From contig NZ_CP012401.1 of assembly GCF_001305595.1 (NCBI RefSeq), positions 2,553,001 through 2,617,000 on the forward strand: a stretch of DNA of 64,000 bases. Direction: 5' to 3'. The notes below the pieces were generated by a model, which did no database searches, was not told the DNA's origin, and was given only the letters and a program-made list of their open reading frames with translations. Shown here in pieces: positions 25,078 to 30,299 of this stretch; position 1 is the first letter of the stretch; the number at the start of each line of letters is the position of its first letter. The stretch comes from Azospirillum thiophilum. GTDB taxonomy: Bacteria; Pseudomonadota; Alphaproteobacteria; Azospirillales; Azospirillaceae. The translations under genes and the position numbers were made by a program.

Positions 25078-26499
25078 TCAAACGACCCGGAAGTTCTTGA
25101 ACTGCCACGGATCGTCCTCGTCGATGTCCTCGGGGAACAGGACGTTGCGGTCCTGCAGCGGAGTCCAGTCGCCATAGGCGCCGATCACCTCGCCGAGATA
25201 GGGTTCGGCGATGTCCAACACCCTGCGGAAATCGACCTCGTCCGGCTCGACCACGCCCCGATTCGGATTCTCCAGCACCCAGACGATGCCGCCCAGGACG
25301 GTGGAGGTCACCTGCATCGAGGTGGCGTTGTTGTAGGGCGCCAGCCCCCGCGCCTCGTCGATCGCCAGGCGCGAGCCGTACCAGTAGGCGCCCTTCTCGT
25401 GGCCCATCAGCAGCACGCCGAGCTCGTCCATGCCGTCGGTGATCTCGTGCATCATCAGCCGCTGTTCGGCCTGGATGTTGAAGTTCTTGCCGGCCAGTTC
25501 GTGCAGCGACATCACCGCGTCGTCGCAGGGGTGATAGGCATAGTGGCAGGTCGGGCGGTAGACGACGCGGTCGCCCTCGCGCACCGTGAAATAGTCGGAG
25601 ATCGAGATCGCTTCGCTGTGGGTGATCAGGAAGCCGTGGAACGGCCCCTCCAGCGGAGTCCAGGTGCGCACGCGGGTGGCGGCGCCCGGCCGCATCAGAT
25701 AGATGGCGGAGCCGCAGCCGAACTCGTGCCGGCGGCCGTCGTCGGGCAGCTGCTTCTCGTGCGTGCCCCAGCCAAGTTCGGCCGGCTGGCAGCCTTCGCT
25801 GACGAATCCGTCGATCGACCAGGTGTTGACGAACTCGCCGATGCGCTTGGGCTGGTTCGAGACCTGGGTGTCGCGCTCGGCGACATGGATGGTCTTGACG
25901 CCGAGCCGCTGCGCCAGCCGTGCCCAGCCGTCGCGGTCGGTCGGCACGTCGGTCACGACCCCGGTGTCGGCGGCGACGTTCAGCAGCGCCTGCTTGACGA
26001 AATGCGACACCAGCCCTGGATTCGCTCCATGGGTGATCAGCGCGGTCGGCCCGCCTTCGAAACGGCGGCGCAGGGCCAGCGCCGTTTCGCGCAGCGCATA
26101 GTTCGAGCGCAGCGACGGCGACAGGCTGGAATCGGTGTAGCCGCCGGCCCACGGCTCGGTGCAGGTGTCGGTGTAGAAGGCGCCGACCCGCTGGCAGAAT
26201 TCGATCAGCGCGATCGACGACACGTCGACCGACAGGTTGACCAGGAAATCGCCACGGTCGATCAGCGGCTTCAGCACCTGGAAGAAATTATCGTTGTCGA
26301 GCGGGTTGTTGTGGAAGGCGACGCCATACAGCTCCGCCTCCTCCCGCCCGCGCTCCTCGGCGGTGACGATGGTGATCCGGTCGGCGGTAAGTCCGTCGAT
26401 GTGACGCAACAGCAGTGGCAAGACACCCTGGCCGATCGAACCGAATCCAATGATGACCATGCGGCCTGTGAACGTACAGAGCTTCGTGTCCAGGGCCAT
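25078..26499 (-). CDS. hss: Homospermidine synthase
   Basis: The 473-residue NAD-dependent enzyme makes sym-homospermidine from two putrescines, or from spermidine plus putrescine, in the cytoplasm. The N-terminal Rossmann fold shows VVIIGFGSIGQG-like glycine residues near 15-25, and further family stretches are ITHGANPGLVSHFVKQAL near 160 and CHYAYHPCDDAVMSLHEL near 315. Length matches the bacterial family. The ATG at 26499 has GGGAG ten bases upstream. The decarboxylase immediately upstream on the same strand would supply its putrescine, so the pair forms a short homospermidine pathway. The two genes are 161 bp apart and could share a transcript or have separate starts. Confidence 0.93.
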   Translation of the reverse strand: MALDTKLCTFTGRMVIIGFGSIGQGVLPLLLRHIDGLTADRITIVTAEERGREEAELYGVAFHNNPLDNDNFFQVLKPLIDRGDFLVNLSVDVSSIALIEFCQRVGAFYTDTCTEPWAGGYTDSSLSPSLRSNYALRETALALRRRFEGGPTALITHGANPGLVSHFVKQALLNVAADTGVVTDVPTDRDGWARLAQRLGVKTIHVAERDTQVSNQPKRIGEFVNTWSIDGFVSEGCQPAELGWGTHEKQLPDDGRRHEFGCGSAIYLMRPGAATRVRTWTPLEGPFHGFLITHSEAISISDYFTVREGDRVVYRPTCHYAYHPCDDAVMSLHELAGKNFNIQAEQRLMMHEITDGMDELGVLLMGHEKGAYWYGSRLAIDEARGLAPYNNATSMQVTSTVLGGIVWVLENPNRGVVEPDEVDFRRVLDIAEPYLGEVIGAYGDWTPLQDRNVLFPEDIDEDDPWQFKNFRVV

Positions 26500-26628: not shown

Positions 26629-26661
26629 TCCGGCTTTTCCGCTGACTCCGGCTTTTCCGCT
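26629..26661. repeat. Two tandem copies of an 18-bp unit at the end of the decarboxylase gene
   Basis: The 15-base core TCCGGCTTTTCCGCT occurs at 26629-26643 and 26647-26661, a period of 18 bp. The second copy abuts the decarboxylase stop codon. It may be a recent small duplication. Confidence 0.6.
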
Positions 26662-27947
26662 CAGGCGGCGCAGGACTGCAGACGGTAGCCGGGCGTGGCC
26701 AACAGCGGCGCGTCCGACACCTCGACGATGCGCGCCTGATCGAAGCCGTTGAAGGCGGTGCGCAGACAGGAGCCGTAGGCGCCGAGCTGCCCTAGCTCGA
26801 TCCAGTCGCCGGCCTTGATGTCGGCCGGCAGGTGGAACGGGCCGTTCATCCGATCGGCGCTGTCGCAGGTCGGGCCGTAGAAGCTGAACGCCTCCTCGCC
26901 AGCGTCGGACATCGCCTCGAACGGACGGATCAGCCGCGCCGGGAAGCGGAATCCCGGCACGCCAGCGTCCGACAGCCCACCATAGACGCCGTCGTTGATG
27001 AACAGTTCGCCGCCCCGCCGCTTGACCACCTGCACCACCAGCGAGACGCCGGGGGCGACCAGGGCGCGGCCCGGCTCGCACCACAGGCGGCAGCTTGCGG
27101 GCAGGTCGAGCGCCGAGACGCCGCGGGCGATGGCGGCCATGAAGTCACCGAGCGGCGGCGGGGTGACACCCGGATAGGACACCGGGAAGCCGCCGCCGAC
27201 ATCCAGCACGTCGATGGCGACGCCGCTGTCGGCGATGACCCGGCCGGCCAGCGCGATGGCGCGCTCGTAGGCCGACGGATCGAGCATCTGCGAGCCGACA
27301 TGGAAGGACAGCCCGACCTTCGGCGCCACCGCGCGGACCTCGCGCAGCAGGTCCGCCGCGTCGGCCATGGCGGCGCCGAACTTGCCGGACAGGTCGTAGA
27401 CGGCATTGCCCTTCGGCAGTGCCAGACGCACGACGAGGCCGAGGTTGGCGGCGTTGTCCGTCTCCTCCAGGATCTTGGCCAGCTCCTCGCGGCTGTCGAG
27501 CACGAAGTCACGCACGCCATATTGACGATAGGCGTTGCGGATCGCCTGCCGGCCCTTCACCGGATGCATGTAATGCAGCACGGCGTCGGGAAACATCTGG
27601 CGGATCAGCCGGATCTCGCCGGGCGAGGCGACGTCGAAATGGCGCACGCCGCCGGCCCACAGCGCGCGCAGCACCGCCGGTTCCGGATTGCACTTCACGG
27701 CATAGAGCACGTCGCCGCCGCGGGCCGACGCGTCGGTCGCCTCGCCGAAGGCGGCGAGGAAGCTGCCGGCGGTGTCAGCCAGCACGCCGGGGCGGATGCA
27801 GTGCATCGGCTCTTCCGGCCGGTGCAGGGCGACCGCCTGGGCGACGGTCGAGCGGCGGCCGCTGCCGGACAGCGAAACGGCGCTGCTGTCGTTCATGCCG
27901 ACGCGGCGGAGCGGGGTGACGGCGGAACGGGAACGCAGGAAACCCAT
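26661..27947 (-). CDS. PLP-dependent ornithine/diamino-acid decarboxylase (fold type III)
   Basis: The 428-residue enzyme of the eukaryotic-type ODC/DAP-decarboxylase family removes the carboxylate of ornithine (or lysine or arginine) to give a polyamine precursor. K85 in YAVKCNP is the PLP Schiff-base lysine, GGGFP (251-255) and EPGR (291-294) bind the phosphate, and C361 in YGPTCDS is the cross-subunit active-site cysteine. Length and motif set fit ODC better than DAP decarboxylase, and the hss gene downstream favours putrescine as product. The ATG at 27947 has GGAG eight bases upstream; an internal ATG at 27896 is less likely. A structured leader RNA precedes it, see 27948-28319. Confidence 0.9.
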   Translation of the reverse strand: MGFLRSRSAVTPLRRVGMNDSSAVSLSGSGRRSTVAQAVALHRPEEPMHCIRPGVLADTAGSFLAAFGEATDASARGGDVLYAVKCNPEPAVLRALWAGGVRHFDVASPGEIRLIRQMFPDAVLHYMHPVKGRQAIRNAYRQYGVRDFVLDSREELAKILEETDNAANLGLVVRLALPKGNAVYDLSGKFGAAMADAADLLREVRAVAPKVGLSFHVGSQMLDPSAYERAIALAGRVIADSGVAIDVLDVGGGFPVSYPGVTPPPLGDFMAAIARGVSALDLPASCRLWCEPGRALVAPGVSLVVQVVKRRGGELFINDGVYGGLSDAGVPGFRFPARLIRPFEAMSDAGEEAFSFYGPTCDSADRMNGPFHLPADIKAGDWIELGQLGAYGSCLRTAFNGFDQARIVEVSDAPLLATPGYRLQSCAA

Positions 27948-28098
27948 GGCGCACTCCTATCCCCGGGCCGCGGCATGCAAGCCGGCCCGGTGAGCAGACG
28001 GCGACCCCAGGCCACGCAGGCAACGCACAGCACAAGGCTGGAGCGCTGGTTGGGCAGCAGGATCGTCGATCGTTCGAATTTGGGAAGGGGGGAGACGG

Positions 28099-28124
28099 AA
28101 AAAGCCGGTGCGAGCAGCGGCCCC
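28099..28124 (-). terminator. Candidate attenuator terminator in the decarboxylase leader
   Basis: On the minus strand a G+C-rich stem (GGGCCG pairing with CGGCTT, two G-U pairs) encloses a 10-base loop and runs into TTTTT. It lies about 150 bases before the decarboxylase start. A competing 7-bp pair joins 28159-28165 to 28103-28109, which uses the same 3' arm. Premature termination is predicted, not shown. Confidence 0.5.
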
Positions 28125-28171
28125 GGGCTGTGAAGCTCCAGGCAACGGCGCGTCGTTTACCGGCTATAGGG

Positions 28172-28207
28172 CTACCGTCTCACAGCCCCACCGTGGGCAG
28201 CGTACAT
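28172..28207 (-). CDS. Leader peptide uORF, 11 residues (MYAAHGGAVRR)
   Basis: An ATG at 28207 opens an 11-codon frame ending in a TAG at 28172-28174. GGAGG lies five bases before the ATG, one of the better Shine-Dalgarno sites in the window. The last two codons are AGA and CGG for Arg-Arg, and AGA should be rare in this G+C-rich genome. The bases encoding its last codons pair with a downstream leader segment (28125-28133), so ribosome position could change the fold. In gammaproteobacteria the SpeFL leader peptide senses ornithine before speF; a similar role here is inference, since the peptide itself is not similar in length. Confidence 0.55.
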   Translation of the reverse strand: MYAAHGGAVRR

Positions 28208-28324
28208 ACTGACCTCCCTCTCGGGACCGACCCACTGGAATGGCCGGTTCTTCCAAAAAGGACGCGGTACGTCGTAGCATAACCACAGAGGGCCATAGGC
28301 ACGTGCGGGTGCGTCGTGCCGATT

Positions 28325-28352
28325 GATTTACGCTATTCGGCCCGCGATTCAA
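28325..28352 (-). promoter_or_regulatory. Candidate sigma-70 promoter of the decarboxylase leader
   Basis: On the minus strand TTGAAT (28352-28347), a 16-base spacer and TAAATC (28330-28325) resemble a -35/-10 pair. The predicted start near 28319 coincides with the first stem of the leader. The 28353-28411 stretch further upstream holds no recognised feature. Confidence 0.45.
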
Positions 28353-28411
28353 GTGAAATTTTTAAGGCGAGAATGGGGCGGACCGGAGGACGTCAGGGCA
28401 TCGCCGCGATG

Positions 28412-29014
28412 TCAGGCTCGAACAGGGGGCTCGAACAGGGGAAAGCGCGCGGCGATGGGATCGCCGGTCGGGACGGCGACCCAGCCATCGGGACGGGTGA
28501 AGAACCGGATGGCGGTGAAGCGCGGCCGCGCCCCCATGTCGAACCAGTGCGGCGTCCCGGCGGGGATGCTCAGCAGGTCGCCGGCCTCGCACACGACGCG
28601 GAATACGCGGCGGTCGAGATGGATGTAGAAGGCGCCGGCCCCTTCGACGAAGGCGCGGGCCTCGTCCTCGCCGTGGGTATGCTCCTCCATGAACTTGGCC
28701 CGGAGGGCGGCCGAGCCCTCGGTCGCCGGGGTGATGCGCACGACGTCGACCGAGCCGAAGCGGCGTCCCGCCTTCATCCGGGCGATGGGGCCGGCATAGT
28801 CCAGCAGCACCGCGCCGGCATCGGCGTTGGCGTCGGCGTCAGCGTCAGCGGAAGCGGGCAGGGATGCGTCGATCGCCCAGCGCTCGAACAGGATGCCGAT
28901 GTGGGCGAGATGCCCGGCCATCAGGTCCGGATCGGCGGTGCTCAACTCCGGCCGGCGGGCATCGCTTTCCAGATAGACGGTCAGGTGACTCAACCCTGCG
29001 CACTCCAGCCGCAT
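28412..29014 (-). CDS. mtnD: Acireductone dioxygenase (ARD/ARD' family cupin)
   Basis: The 200-residue cupin belongs to the methionine-salvage dioxygenase family, which oxidises acireductone to the keto acid precursor of methionine (Fe form) or off-pathway products (Ni form). The metal ligands are visible as H112, H114, E118 and H156 in EEHTHGEDEAR and GTPHWFDMG. The length is about 20 residues above the usual size because of an Ala/Asp-rich insert at about 54-67. It starts at the ATG at 29014; a longer frame from 29131 lacks family similarity. No other salvage gene (mtnA, mtnB, mtnC) is in the window. The divergent or shared control with the MFS gene upstream is unclear. Confidence 0.85.
   Translation of the reverse strand: MRLECAGLSHLTVYLESDARRPELSTADPDLMAGHLAHIGILFERWAIDASLPASADADADANADAGAVLLDYAGPIARMKAGRRFGSVDVVRITPATEGSAALRAKFMEEHTHGEDEARAFVEGAGAFYIHLDRRVFRVVCEAGDLLSIPAGTPHWFDMGARPRFTAIRFFTRPDGWVAVPTGDPIAARFPLFEPPVRA
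28820..28850. repeat. Hexanucleotide repeat inside mtnD
   Basis: About five imperfect copies of a 6-bp unit (GCGTCG/GCGTCA type on the plus strand) encode alternating Ala-Asp in MtnD residues 56-66. The repeat keeps frame, so changes in copy number would only lengthen or shorten a loop. Confidence 0.7.
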
Positions 29015-29090
29015 CAATCCGGCAGAGCGTGACGCGAGATTGTTCGTGATGCAACGAGCCGAAGGACGTGTGTGACCGTTCGCCGCAATA

Positions 29091-30299
29091 TCAGCGGCTG
29101 CGCTGGAGCCCAGCCGTGACCGCAACCGCAATCACAAGCAGCAAGCCGACGAAGAGCGCGACTCCGGTCCAGCCATGGTCGTGCCAGAACAACCCGCCCA
29201 GCGTCCCGGCGAGCGTGGAGCCGACATAATAGCAGAACAGATAGATCGATGACGCCTGTCCGCGCGCCACCGCGGCCCGCCGGCCGATCCAGGCCGAGAC
29301 GATGGAATGGGCGCCGAAGAAGGCGAAGGTGAACAGGGCGATGCCGGGGGCGATGGCGAACAGGCTGTCGATCTCCAGCAGCGCCAGCCCGGCCACCATC
29401 AGGGCCACCGCCGCGGCCAGCGTGCGGTTGGAGCCGATGCGCCCCGACCAGCCGCCGAACAGCGGCGAGCTGACGACGCCGAAGCTGTAGACCAGGAACA
29501 CCGCGCCGACGATGGCCGGCCGCAGCTCGAACGGCGATTCGCTCAGGCGGAAGCCGATATAGTTGAAGACCGTGACGAAGCCACCCATCAGCAGGAAGCC
29601 CAGCGAGAACAGCCCAAGCAGCGCCGGATCGGTCAGCAACCCGCGCCATGCCCGCGCGAGCCCGCGCAATCCGGCGGCCCGGCGGATGAAATGGCGCGAC
29701 GGCGGCAGGGCCAGCCAGACGGTGATCCCGGCCGCCACCGCCAGCGCGCCCACCACCCCGACCGCGAGCCTCCAGGTGCCGAGGTCGGTGACGACGGCGG
29801 TCAGCACCCGGCCCGACATGCCGCCGATGGCGGTGCCGCCGATATAGAGCCCCATGGCGACGCCGGCCGATTTGGGGTCGACCTCTTCGGAGACATAGGC
29901 CATGGCGACGGCGGGCAGGCCGCTCAGCGCCAGCCCTTCGATCGCCCGCACCGCCAGGAAGCCATGCCAGTCCGGCATCAGCGCCCCGACGATGCCGAGC
30001 AGGCCGGCGGCGAGCAGGGCCGCCACCATCACCGGCTTGCGCCCGATCCCGTCGGAAATGGCGCCGGCCACCAGCAGCGCCCCGGCAAGGACGCCGGTGG
30101 TCAGCGACAGCGATAGGCTGGATTCGGCCGGCGTCACCCCGAACTCGCGCACGAAGTCGGGCAGCAGCGGCTGCACGCAATAGAGCGTGGCGAAGGTGGA
30201 GAAGCCGGCGACGAACAGGATTCGGCTGGCGCGGCGATAGGCGGGGGTGCCGGCCTGCAGATAGGCGGTGTCGGCACCGGTCTCGATCTCGTCGCGCAC
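29091..30299 (-). CDS. MFS transporter, YnfM-like drug/metabolite efflux family
   Basis: The 402-residue inner-membrane protein has twelve predicted helices and the MFS motif A as [13 protein letters not shown] in the loop between helices 2 and 3, with a second-half copy [13 protein letters not shown]. The family exports small molecules by proton antiport; the substrate cannot be read. The GTG at 30299 was chosen because GAGGAG lies eight bases upstream; the longest frame starts at 30329 without such a site. It lies 76 bp upstream of mtnD on the same strand and divergent from serS. Confidence 0.85.

What the first reader, a model, noticed from the sequence alone, without database searches (positions are those of the whole stretch)
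27948..28352. Leader RNA with a stall-prone 11-codon uORF and attenuator before the ornithine decarboxylase gene
The minus-strand leader shows a candidate promoter (28325-28352), a GAGA-tetraloop hairpin that overlaps the uORF ribosome site, the uORF ending AGA-CGG-TAG (28172-28207), a 9-bp pair from the uORF end to 28125-28133, and a U5 hairpin (28099-28124) before the decarboxylase. Together these resemble a translation-linked polyamine or ornithine sensor. The speF RNA motif and the SpeFL arrest peptide are known in this setting, but the 11-residue peptide MYAAHGGAVRR is not SpeFL-like.
Basis: partly seen in the sequence, partly recalled or inferred. Interest (0 to 1): 0.85.

Follow-up and report, generated by a model that had tools for sequence, protein, structure and literature searches.

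The report
Ornithine decarboxylase leader with tiny gene
The RNA in front of a polyamine-making gene looks like a highly conserved switch: it folds over the start signal of a tiny upstream gene whose translation probably decides whether the enzyme is made, and it is probably a distant relative of an unexplained regulatory RNA described in 2005.

Summary
An 11-codon uORF (28207-28172, MYAAHGGAVRR) sits in a leader nearly invariant before the same decarboxylase in 35 of 37 same-genus genomes; all 35 keep an 11-12 codon uORF ending Arg-Arg or Arg-Pro. No Rfam family matches the window, yet models built here find the leader in 65 of 372 alphaproteobacterial genomes, and 97 of 99 loci whose next gene could be read have ODC or homospermidine synthase. 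Model R2 also aligns, weakly, with the known alpha-r45/speF tandem, so I read this as a divergent branch of that orphan leader. A long hairpin (28262-28253 with 28224-28215) hides the uORF ribosome site. Unexpected: in the long-uORF branch, including a second copy in this genome, the peptide tail carries Ser-Ser-[Ile/Met/Leu] near the stop (35 of 57 against 2.8 by codon shuffle; motif chosen after seeing the data); the first Ser uses six codons, the second is AGT in 39 of 39, a rare codon. This looks like an undescribed arrest motif. Arrest, ligand and Rho are inferred.

The parts
28325..28353 (-). candidate promoter CTTGAA-N17-TAAATC
   Evidence: -35/-10 pair found by pattern in 31 of 35 same-genus leaders; not found by the generic scan
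28298..28306 (-). [quoted passage not shown]
28281..28294 (-). helix PA, GGCC 28294-28291 with GGTT 28284-28281; carries insertions in some relatives
   Evidence: 95.8% of cells paired, two of four pairs changed on both sides; but probability 0 in the fold of the window alone
28270..28280 (-). conserved block ATGCTACGACG (ATGCAACGACG in most relatives), function unknown
28255..28273 (-). terminator-like hairpin GACGU/GCGUC followed by CTTTTT, overlapping P2; near the place where the alpha-r45 model ends and speF begins in relatives
   Evidence: GACG/CGTC in 51 of 53, so hardly any covariation; partly by selection
28215..28262 (-). long hairpin P2/P3: UCCUUUUUGG 28262-28253 with CCGAGAGGGA 28224-28215, ACCGGCC 28248-28242 with GGUCGGU 28232-28226; hides the uORF Shine-Dalgarno
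   Evidence: P2 pair probability 1.0, Shine-Dalgarno 13% unpaired
28213..28220 (-). uORF Shine-Dalgarno GAGGGAGG
28172..28207 (-). uORF, 11 codons, MYAAHGGAVRR, stop TAG
   Evidence: a uORF of 11-12 codons in 35 of 35 same-genus leaders
28103..28165 (-). structured spacer closed by AGCCGG 28165-28160 and CCGGCU 28108-28103, with an inner bulged hairpin
   Evidence: closing stem 0.99 free, 0.03 with a ribosome imitated on the uORF stop
28076..28103 (-). C-rich, G-poor stretch, possible Rho site (inference from composition)
   Evidence: unpaired 0.45 free, 0.83 with ribosome
26661..27947 (-). ornithine/lysine decarboxylase-like gene behind the leader
   Evidence: best solved relatives lysine/ornithine decarboxylases 5gjm and 2plj
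25078..26499 (-). homospermidine-synthase-like gene downstream (name by recall; no NCBIfam hit)

Best explanation
The leader is a two-stage switch of the alphaproteobacterial ornithine decarboxylase leader family (probably a divergent branch of alpha-r45/speF). Stage 1 (structure supported by comparison): a conserved 5' domain and a U-rich/purine-rich hairpin sequester the ribosome site of a uORF, so uORF initiation is gated by RNA folding. Stage 2 (inferred): when the uORF is read, the ribosome slows or arrests at its end (Arg-Arg or Arg-Pro before TAG/TAA), covers the 5' arm of AGCCGG/CCGGCU, opens the spacer and keeps Rho or RNase off, so that decarboxylase mRNA is completed and translated. 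In the sister branch (second copy in the same genome and many other genera) the uORF is longer and often ends in Ser-Ser(AGU)-Ile/Met/Leu near the stop, which I take as the arrest motif of that branch. What is sensed (ornithine, putrescine or homospermidine) is not known.
For: Leader conservation and uORF in 35 of 35. Detection across the class: R1 51 of 385 genomes at E 0.05, R2 65 of 372 at E 0.01, 82 of 82 genomes held for the order, all one family. Next gene: of 108 RNA-selected loci (not independent of each other) 93 ODC, 4 homospermidine synthase, 2 other, 9 without room. PA/P2/P3 pairing 90.5%, 7 pairs and 17 cells changed on both sides against 3.0 and 6.3 by shuffle. Separate uORF in 82 of 92 assessed loci, fused in frame to the gene in 10. 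Tail motif [SAT]S[IML] in 35 of 57 long uORFs against 2.8 by codon shuffle, and 2 and 0 in the other frames; second Ser AGT in 39 of 39, against 27 of 938 Ser codons in the downstream frames and 10 of 107 other Ser codons in the same uORFs. A ribosome imitated on the uORF stop breaks the spacer stem in the fold. alpha-r45 and speF called side by side, R2 across the junction. Precedent: uORF translation, Rho and ornithine arrest in Salmonella and E. coli speF (abstract and passages of PMC6386406, passages of PMC7815308 and PMC8429421).
Against: No expression, ribosome profiling or ligand data. Shuffles already give 89.0% paired cells, further pair types are no more than by shuffle (25 against 25.2), and slid structures show 9-14 cells changed on both sides against 17. 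In 10 of 92 loci, and by eye in a Rhodobacterales leader, the hairpin lies directly before the decarboxylase frame, so the RNA can act without a uORF. The short Azospirillum peptide varies at many positions, and its His-Gly-x-Ala part lies where a long-range RNA pairing is also predicted. The tail motif was chosen after looking and 18 of 57 long uORFs lack Ser-Ser-x. Speakers for a single leader must also meet the report that alpha-r45 is expressed apart from speF in Bartonella (passage of PMC7717549). speF-type leaders read by eye show no clear uORF. The broken spacer stem follows partly by construction, since the covered stretch includes four bases of its 5' arm. The Rho site is composition only. 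R2 matches to speF are weak (11.6-26.8 bits, E 2.5e-5 to 0.14).
Confidence: 0.5

Rival explanations
1. Pure RNA switch: the 5' domain binds a metabolite or a protein and controls translation initiation of the first ORF (or early termination at 28255); the uORF only couples initiation to the gene and its peptide does not matter.
For: Nearly invariant 5' domain; hairpin directly before the decarboxylase frame in 10 of 92 loci; terminator-like hairpin at 28273-28261 near the alpha-r45/speF boundary; a separate short RNA there is reported in S. meliloti and Bartonella (passages of PMC2573895, PMC7143759, PMC7717549).
Against: Separate uORF in 82 of 92 loci; peptide-level and codon-level constraint at the tail of many long uORFs; A. 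tumefaciens speF RNA bound none of ornithine, lysine, diaminopimelate, putrescine, cadaverine or spermidine (passage of PMC1273637).
Confidence: 0.3
2. Classical arginine attenuation: ribosomes pause at AGA-CGG when charged tRNA-Arg is scarce.
For: AGA-CGG closes the uORF in 32 of 35 same-genus leaders (counted by eye); consecutive Arg codons act so in Salmonella orf34 (abstract and passages of PMC6386406).
Against: Second Arg is Pro in L016, L031 and L034; relatives end ALEP, ALVP, ALER, ALKR, ATVM; no conserved terminator downstream.
Confidence: 0.08
3. SpeFL-type ornithine-sensing arrest peptide by descent.
For: Same kind of gene, Arg just before a TAG/TAA stop.
Against: 11-12 residues against 34 for Salmonella ORF34, no likeness by eye, own conserved RNA domain upstream.
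Confidence: 0.05
4. RNA thermometer: the G-U-rich hairpin over the Shine-Dalgarno melts with temperature.
For: U-run paired to a purine run holding the Shine-Dalgarno; smrC45/SpeF stands with an RpoH1/2 entry in a table of S. meliloti sRNAs (passage of PMC7143759).
Against: Strong sequence conservation outside the hairpin and near-restriction to polyamine genes.
Confidence: 0.05

Closest known systems
speF leader RNA (Rfam RF00518) with alpha-r45 sRNA (RF02347)
   Same: GCACGUGCC near the start, (C)AACGACG, U-run 5' arm and purine 3' arm of a long hairpin, upstream of ODC; R2 aligns across the alpha-r45/speF junction
   Different: Window leader is below the Rfam thresholds; it has a uORF after the hairpin, which I do not see in the speF-type leaders read here; its 3' part differs
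odc1 (uORF-25-1) motif, PMC8632094 (section 19 read; figures not held)
   Same: Alphaproteobacterial ODC leader, ribosome site hidden in the 3' side of a hairpin, 11-residue uORF
   Different: odc1 uses two UUG starts two nucleotides apart in different frames and a fixed peptide length; here AUG, uORFs of 11 to 61 codons, and in the window the gene starts 224 nt after the uORF stop. No odc1 sequence was available for alignment, and its peptide logo was not visible to me
SpeFL / ORF34 leader of gammaproteobacterial speF
   Same: uORF before an ODC gene, Arg next to the stop, long structured spacer
   Different: Peptide, RNA and lineage differ; no likeness by eye
TnaC leader peptide
   Same: Arrest at termination with residues 23 and 24 at the end, Pro on the tRNA (passages; that the tail is Arg-Pro-stop is recalled); three Azospirillum uORFs also end Arg-Pro-stop
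   Different: 11-12 residues here, no Trp, different gene

Membership tests
Rfam speF RF00518 | score at or above gathering threshold | tested here: not met
   no speF hit in the window; none in G000
Rfam speF RF00518 | upstream of a COG0019-type ornithine decarboxylase | tested here: met
   (COG number taken from PMC1273637, not searched)
Rfam speF RF00518 | sequence and structure homology to known members | tested here: inconclusive
   R2 hits at the alpha-r45/speF junction in 9 of 9 speF loci given (L036-L041, L296-L298), 11.6-26.8 bits, E 2.5e-5 to 0.14, partial in four
Rfam ar45 RF02347 | score at or above gathering threshold (40) | tested here: not met
   14.8 bits at 28258-28314
odc1 motif | ribosome site in the 3' arm of a conserved hairpin | tested here: met
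odc1 motif | two UUG start codons two nucleotides apart | tested here: not met
   an ATG with an SD-like run follows the hairpin in 140 of 140 leaders by my rule (in L057 the rule takes a wrong ATG)
odc1 motif | peptide length never varies | tested here: not met
odc1 motif | pseudoknot between 5' end and hairpin loop | not tested
   no odc1 sequences held; one search found no Rfam family in 20 further ODC upstream regions
SpeFL arrest peptide | 34-residue peptide with the conserved gammaproteobacterial domain | tested here: not met
   11-12 residues; domain compared by eye only
SpeFL arrest peptide | ornithine-dependent termination arrest | not testable with these tools
   needs toeprinting
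Intrinsic-terminator attenuator after the uORF | conserved hairpin plus U-run between uORF and gene | tested here: not met
   five or more T after the stem in 11 of 35 leaders

The most novel reading that the evidence does not exclude
Alphaproteobacterial polyamine genes are run by an RNA-gated arrest-peptide switch: a structured RNA decides whether a uORF is started, and the nascent tail (Ser-Ser(AGU)-Ile/Met/Leu in one branch, Arg-Arg/Pro-stop in the Azospirillum branch) senses a polyamine or ornithine inside the ribosome. Two sensors in series would explain why the speF RNA alone bound no ligand in vitro, and an invariant rare codon would be part of the sensor.
Probability: 0.3. Interest if true: 0.87.

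Novelty: new variant of a known kind. Interest (0 to 1): 0.7.

Why it matters
speF has been an orphan regulatory RNA since 2005. This places Rfam-negative leaders of many genera next to it, shows that most of those examined start a uORF under a hairpin that hides its ribosome site, and gives a concrete peptide motif with an invariant rare codon to test for ligand-dependent arrest. Azospirillum is a crop-associated nitrogen fixer (general knowledge), so the system can be tested in a harmless laboratory host.

Tried and rejected
Intrinsic attenuator at 28099-28124: rejected, U-run not conserved. The 9-bp pair: rejected, perfect in 12 of 35 only. Long-range pairing GGCCCUCUGUGG with uORF CCACGGYRGGGC: kept only as a caveat; in the deep set the local stem PA is paired in 95.8% of cells, while the fold of the window gives PA probability 0. 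A hairpin inside uORF codons 6-12: 43% with 6 bp or more against 12% in shuffles but 32% in a control window 60 nt further on, and mean z -0.41, so not claimed. A kissing contact of loop UACCG (28268-28264 or so) with CGGUA of the uORF end was considered by eye and dropped because relatives break it. Cross-class control: the phylum draw gave 11 of 200 hits, all in the same class, but the 20 misses listed are also same class and 169 are not listed, so it is a weak control. A plasmid search with the leader found nothing. Twenty ODC upstream regions, two of them (L287, L295) from genomes with an R2 match, brought no Rfam hit and nothing that I could recognise as odc1.

Known weaknesses: the 80 pattern loci were chosen by ACGACGNNNNGCGTCCTTTTTGG, so invariance of that stretch there is by selection. 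The 108 loci are these 80 plus 28 of the 30 loci given (own genome and one congener left out), and they share species. My start-codon rule picks a wrong ATG in L057. Dropped before the covariation count: three leaders with a changed GCACGTGCC (L074, L075, L077), five with long inserts (L061, L062, L110, L117, L145), two more that one search dropped without naming (apparently cut by contig ends), near-duplicates (133 to 56), and L053, L060, L099 (long loop inserts; 56 to 53). The tail motif and the residue set after Ser-Ser were chosen by eye and then tested on a set that includes those loci; among the 18 second-copy uORFs fetched later, 10 carry [SAT]S[IML] (counted), but they are related to each other. 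L073, a 16-codon uORF outside the test, ends PASIA with AGC for its Ser. Of the 20 loci fetched as second copies, L238 and L241 proved to be something else. One search read many loci in the wrong orientation; its output was discarded and replaced.

Full report
Setting. On the minus strand the window holds a decarboxylase gene (26661-27947) whose best solved relatives are lysine/ornithine decarboxylases, followed by a gene I read as homospermidine synthase (25078-26499; name recalled, no NCBIfam hit). The genome is 7.6 Mb in 8 contigs and close to Azospirillum by named relatives: A. lipoferum L100 (90% over 101 aa held) and A. oryzae L108 (91% over 428 aa). Rfam finds nothing in the window at gathering scores; with relaxed scores in 27800-28500 the only alphaproteobacterial family is ar45 at 14.8 bits against a threshold of 40, at 28258-28314.

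Same-genus comparison. Of 37 same-genus genomes (G000-G036), 35 have this decarboxylase at 74% identity or more (72% or more). In these 35 the leader is nearly invariant from GACGCAC into the uORF, and in all 35 an ATG 12 nt after the CCGAG of the hairpin opens an 11- or 12-codon uORF: MYAAHGGAVRR, MLALHGRALRR, MFAAHGRAVRP, MLSRRHGRVSRR and others. The codon before last is AGA in all 35, the last is CGG or, in three, CCG, and the stop TAG or TAA. In some nearer relatives (L046, L112, L125, L146) the codon before last is GTA, AAA or GAA. Thus Arg-Arg itself is not fixed.

Structure. In 53 non-redundant cores the helices PA, P2 and P3 pair in 90.5% of cells; sliding the 3' side by one column gives 68.9 and 62.6%; 7 pairs and 17 cells show changes on both sides against 3.0 and 6.3 in shuffles. 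Against this: shuffles already give 89.0% paired because many columns hardly vary, further pair types are no more than by shuffle (25 against 25.2), and slid structures show 9-14 cells with double changes. P2 joins UCCUUUUUGG to the purine run that holds the uORF Shine-Dalgarno; 8 of its 10 pairs vary on one side only (U-G to U-A), so its support rests on pairing percentage and the slide control. The fold of the window gives P2 probability 1.0 and 13% unpaired Shine-Dalgarno. In the second-copy leaders the hairpin arms read differently (UCCCCGA and UUGGAGGU) and look complementary by eye.

How wide it is. Model R1, built from same-genus leaders, hits 51 of 385 genomes of the class at E 0.05; R2, built from the 53 diverse cores, 65 of 372 at E 0.01 and 82 of 82 genomes held for the order, all of one family and 13 genera, with two matches in 74 by my count. 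Of 108 RNA-selected loci (28 from R1, 80 from the pattern, overlapping in species) the next gene is ODC in 93 (54 of a canonical type, 39 of the window type), homospermidine synthase in 4, something else in 2 (L070, L151), and 9 have no room. The uORF is separate in 82 of 92 assessed and runs in frame into the gene in 10.

Relation to speF. RF00518 matches 6 of 190 genomes of the class at E 0.001 or better, 4 over its cut-off. In the four speF loci that I scanned with all of Rfam and in which both were called (L036; Thalassospira marina L296, Sinorhizobium meliloti L297, Methylobacterium bullatum L298) alpha-r45 and speF lie side by side. R2 aligns across the junction in 9 of 9 speF loci given, with 11.6-26.8 bits (E 2.5e-5 to 0.14). 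Shared are GCACGUGCC, (C)AACGACG, the U-run arm and a purine arm. Corbino et al. describe the same order of parts, conservation from a putative transcription start into a stem topped by an insertion, then a long bulged stem-loop (passage, PMC1273637); Niveispirillum-type leaders here carry an insertion. [quoted passage not shown] I take the window leader as a divergent branch of that family; the scores make this probable, not certain. In Bartonella alpha-r45 is reported as expressed apart from the speF leader (passage, PMC7717549), which may mean early termination or processing at the junction.

The peptide tail. The same genome has a second leader at G000:C1:287158, with a 40-codon uORF at 287266 and a canonical ODC at 287482. 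Its peptide ends QSSIGGLSA. The tail motif was first seen and then counted: across 57 non-redundant uORFs of 24 codons or more (those included), 35 carry [SAT]S[IML] in the last 12 codons; codon shuffling gives 2.8; the two other frames give 2 and 0. Of the 18 second-copy uORFs fetched after the motif was noted, 10 carry it (counted). In a rough grouping by alignment score there are 37 clusters, 22 of them with the motif. In the 39 cases of Ser-Ser-[IMLQHR] the first Ser uses TCG 13, TCC 9, AGT 8, AGC 6, TCA 2, TCT 1, which no single RNA sequence explains; the second is AGT in 39 of 39. AGT makes 27 of 938 Ser codons in the longest downstream frames of 37 such loci, and 10 of 107 other Ser codons in the same uORFs. 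Eighteen long uORFs lack Ser-Ser-x. I recall no arrest peptide with this motif; nine literature searches listed none that I recognised, but most subscription papers, Greenlee 2018 on the speF consensus among them, are not held, and the odc1 peptide is shown in a figure that I could not see.

Mechanism. Supported by comparison: hidden uORF ribosome site, conserved uORF, gene association. Computed only: a ribosome imitated on the uORF stop breaks AGCCGG/CCGGCU (0.99 to 0.03; in part by construction, as it covers four bases of that arm), bares the C-rich stretch 28103-28076 (0.45 to 0.83) and raises access to the ODC ribosome site (0.28 to 0.46). Inferred: arrest, Rho and ligand. The precedent is Salmonella orf34, whose translation counters Rho and helps to unfold the structure over the speF ribosome site (abstract, PMC6386406), and E. 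coli speFL, where ornithine stalls ribosomes next to the stop (passage, PMC7815308). The alternative that the RNA domain does the sensing alone remains strong because in some lineages the hairpin lies directly before the ODC frame.

Closest described system besides speF is the odc1 motif (section 19 of PMC8632094 read): ribosome site in a hairpin and an 11-residue uORF, but UUG starts two nucleotides apart and fixed length. Kinship could not be tested for want of its sequences.

Changes on re-checking: the lower R2 score and highest E for speF were mended to 11.6 bits and 0.14, the controls that weaken the covariation and the uORF background of AGT were added, and the post-hoc nature of the tail motif is stated.

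Noticed in passing
G000:C1:287158-288615 (L222), outside the window: Second leader of the same family in the same genome before a canonical ODC, with a 40-codon uORF ending QSSIGGLSA.
   Followed up: yes
L112 (Azospirillum MAG), L114 (A. griseum), L241 (G029): The same leader with uORF MRHAHVGALKR stands before homospermidine synthase; G029 is one of the two same-genus genomes without the window-type ODC.
   Followed up: partly
L070, L151: The leader start codon opens a frame that runs into a glutamine-amidotransferase-like protein (by eye) instead of ODC.
   Followed up: no
L277, L295, L299 (Ruegeria sp. TM1040): The hairpin lies directly before an ATG whose frame appears, by eye, to run into ODC; the annotated ODC start in L299 (793) lies upstream of that ATG.
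   Followed up: partly
G213, G309, G386, G405: Genomes with three R2 matches each; downstream genes of the extra copies not examined.
   Followed up: no
window 28412-29131, minus strand: ORF just upstream of the promoter, cupin-like by eye, no NCBIfam hit.
   Followed up: no
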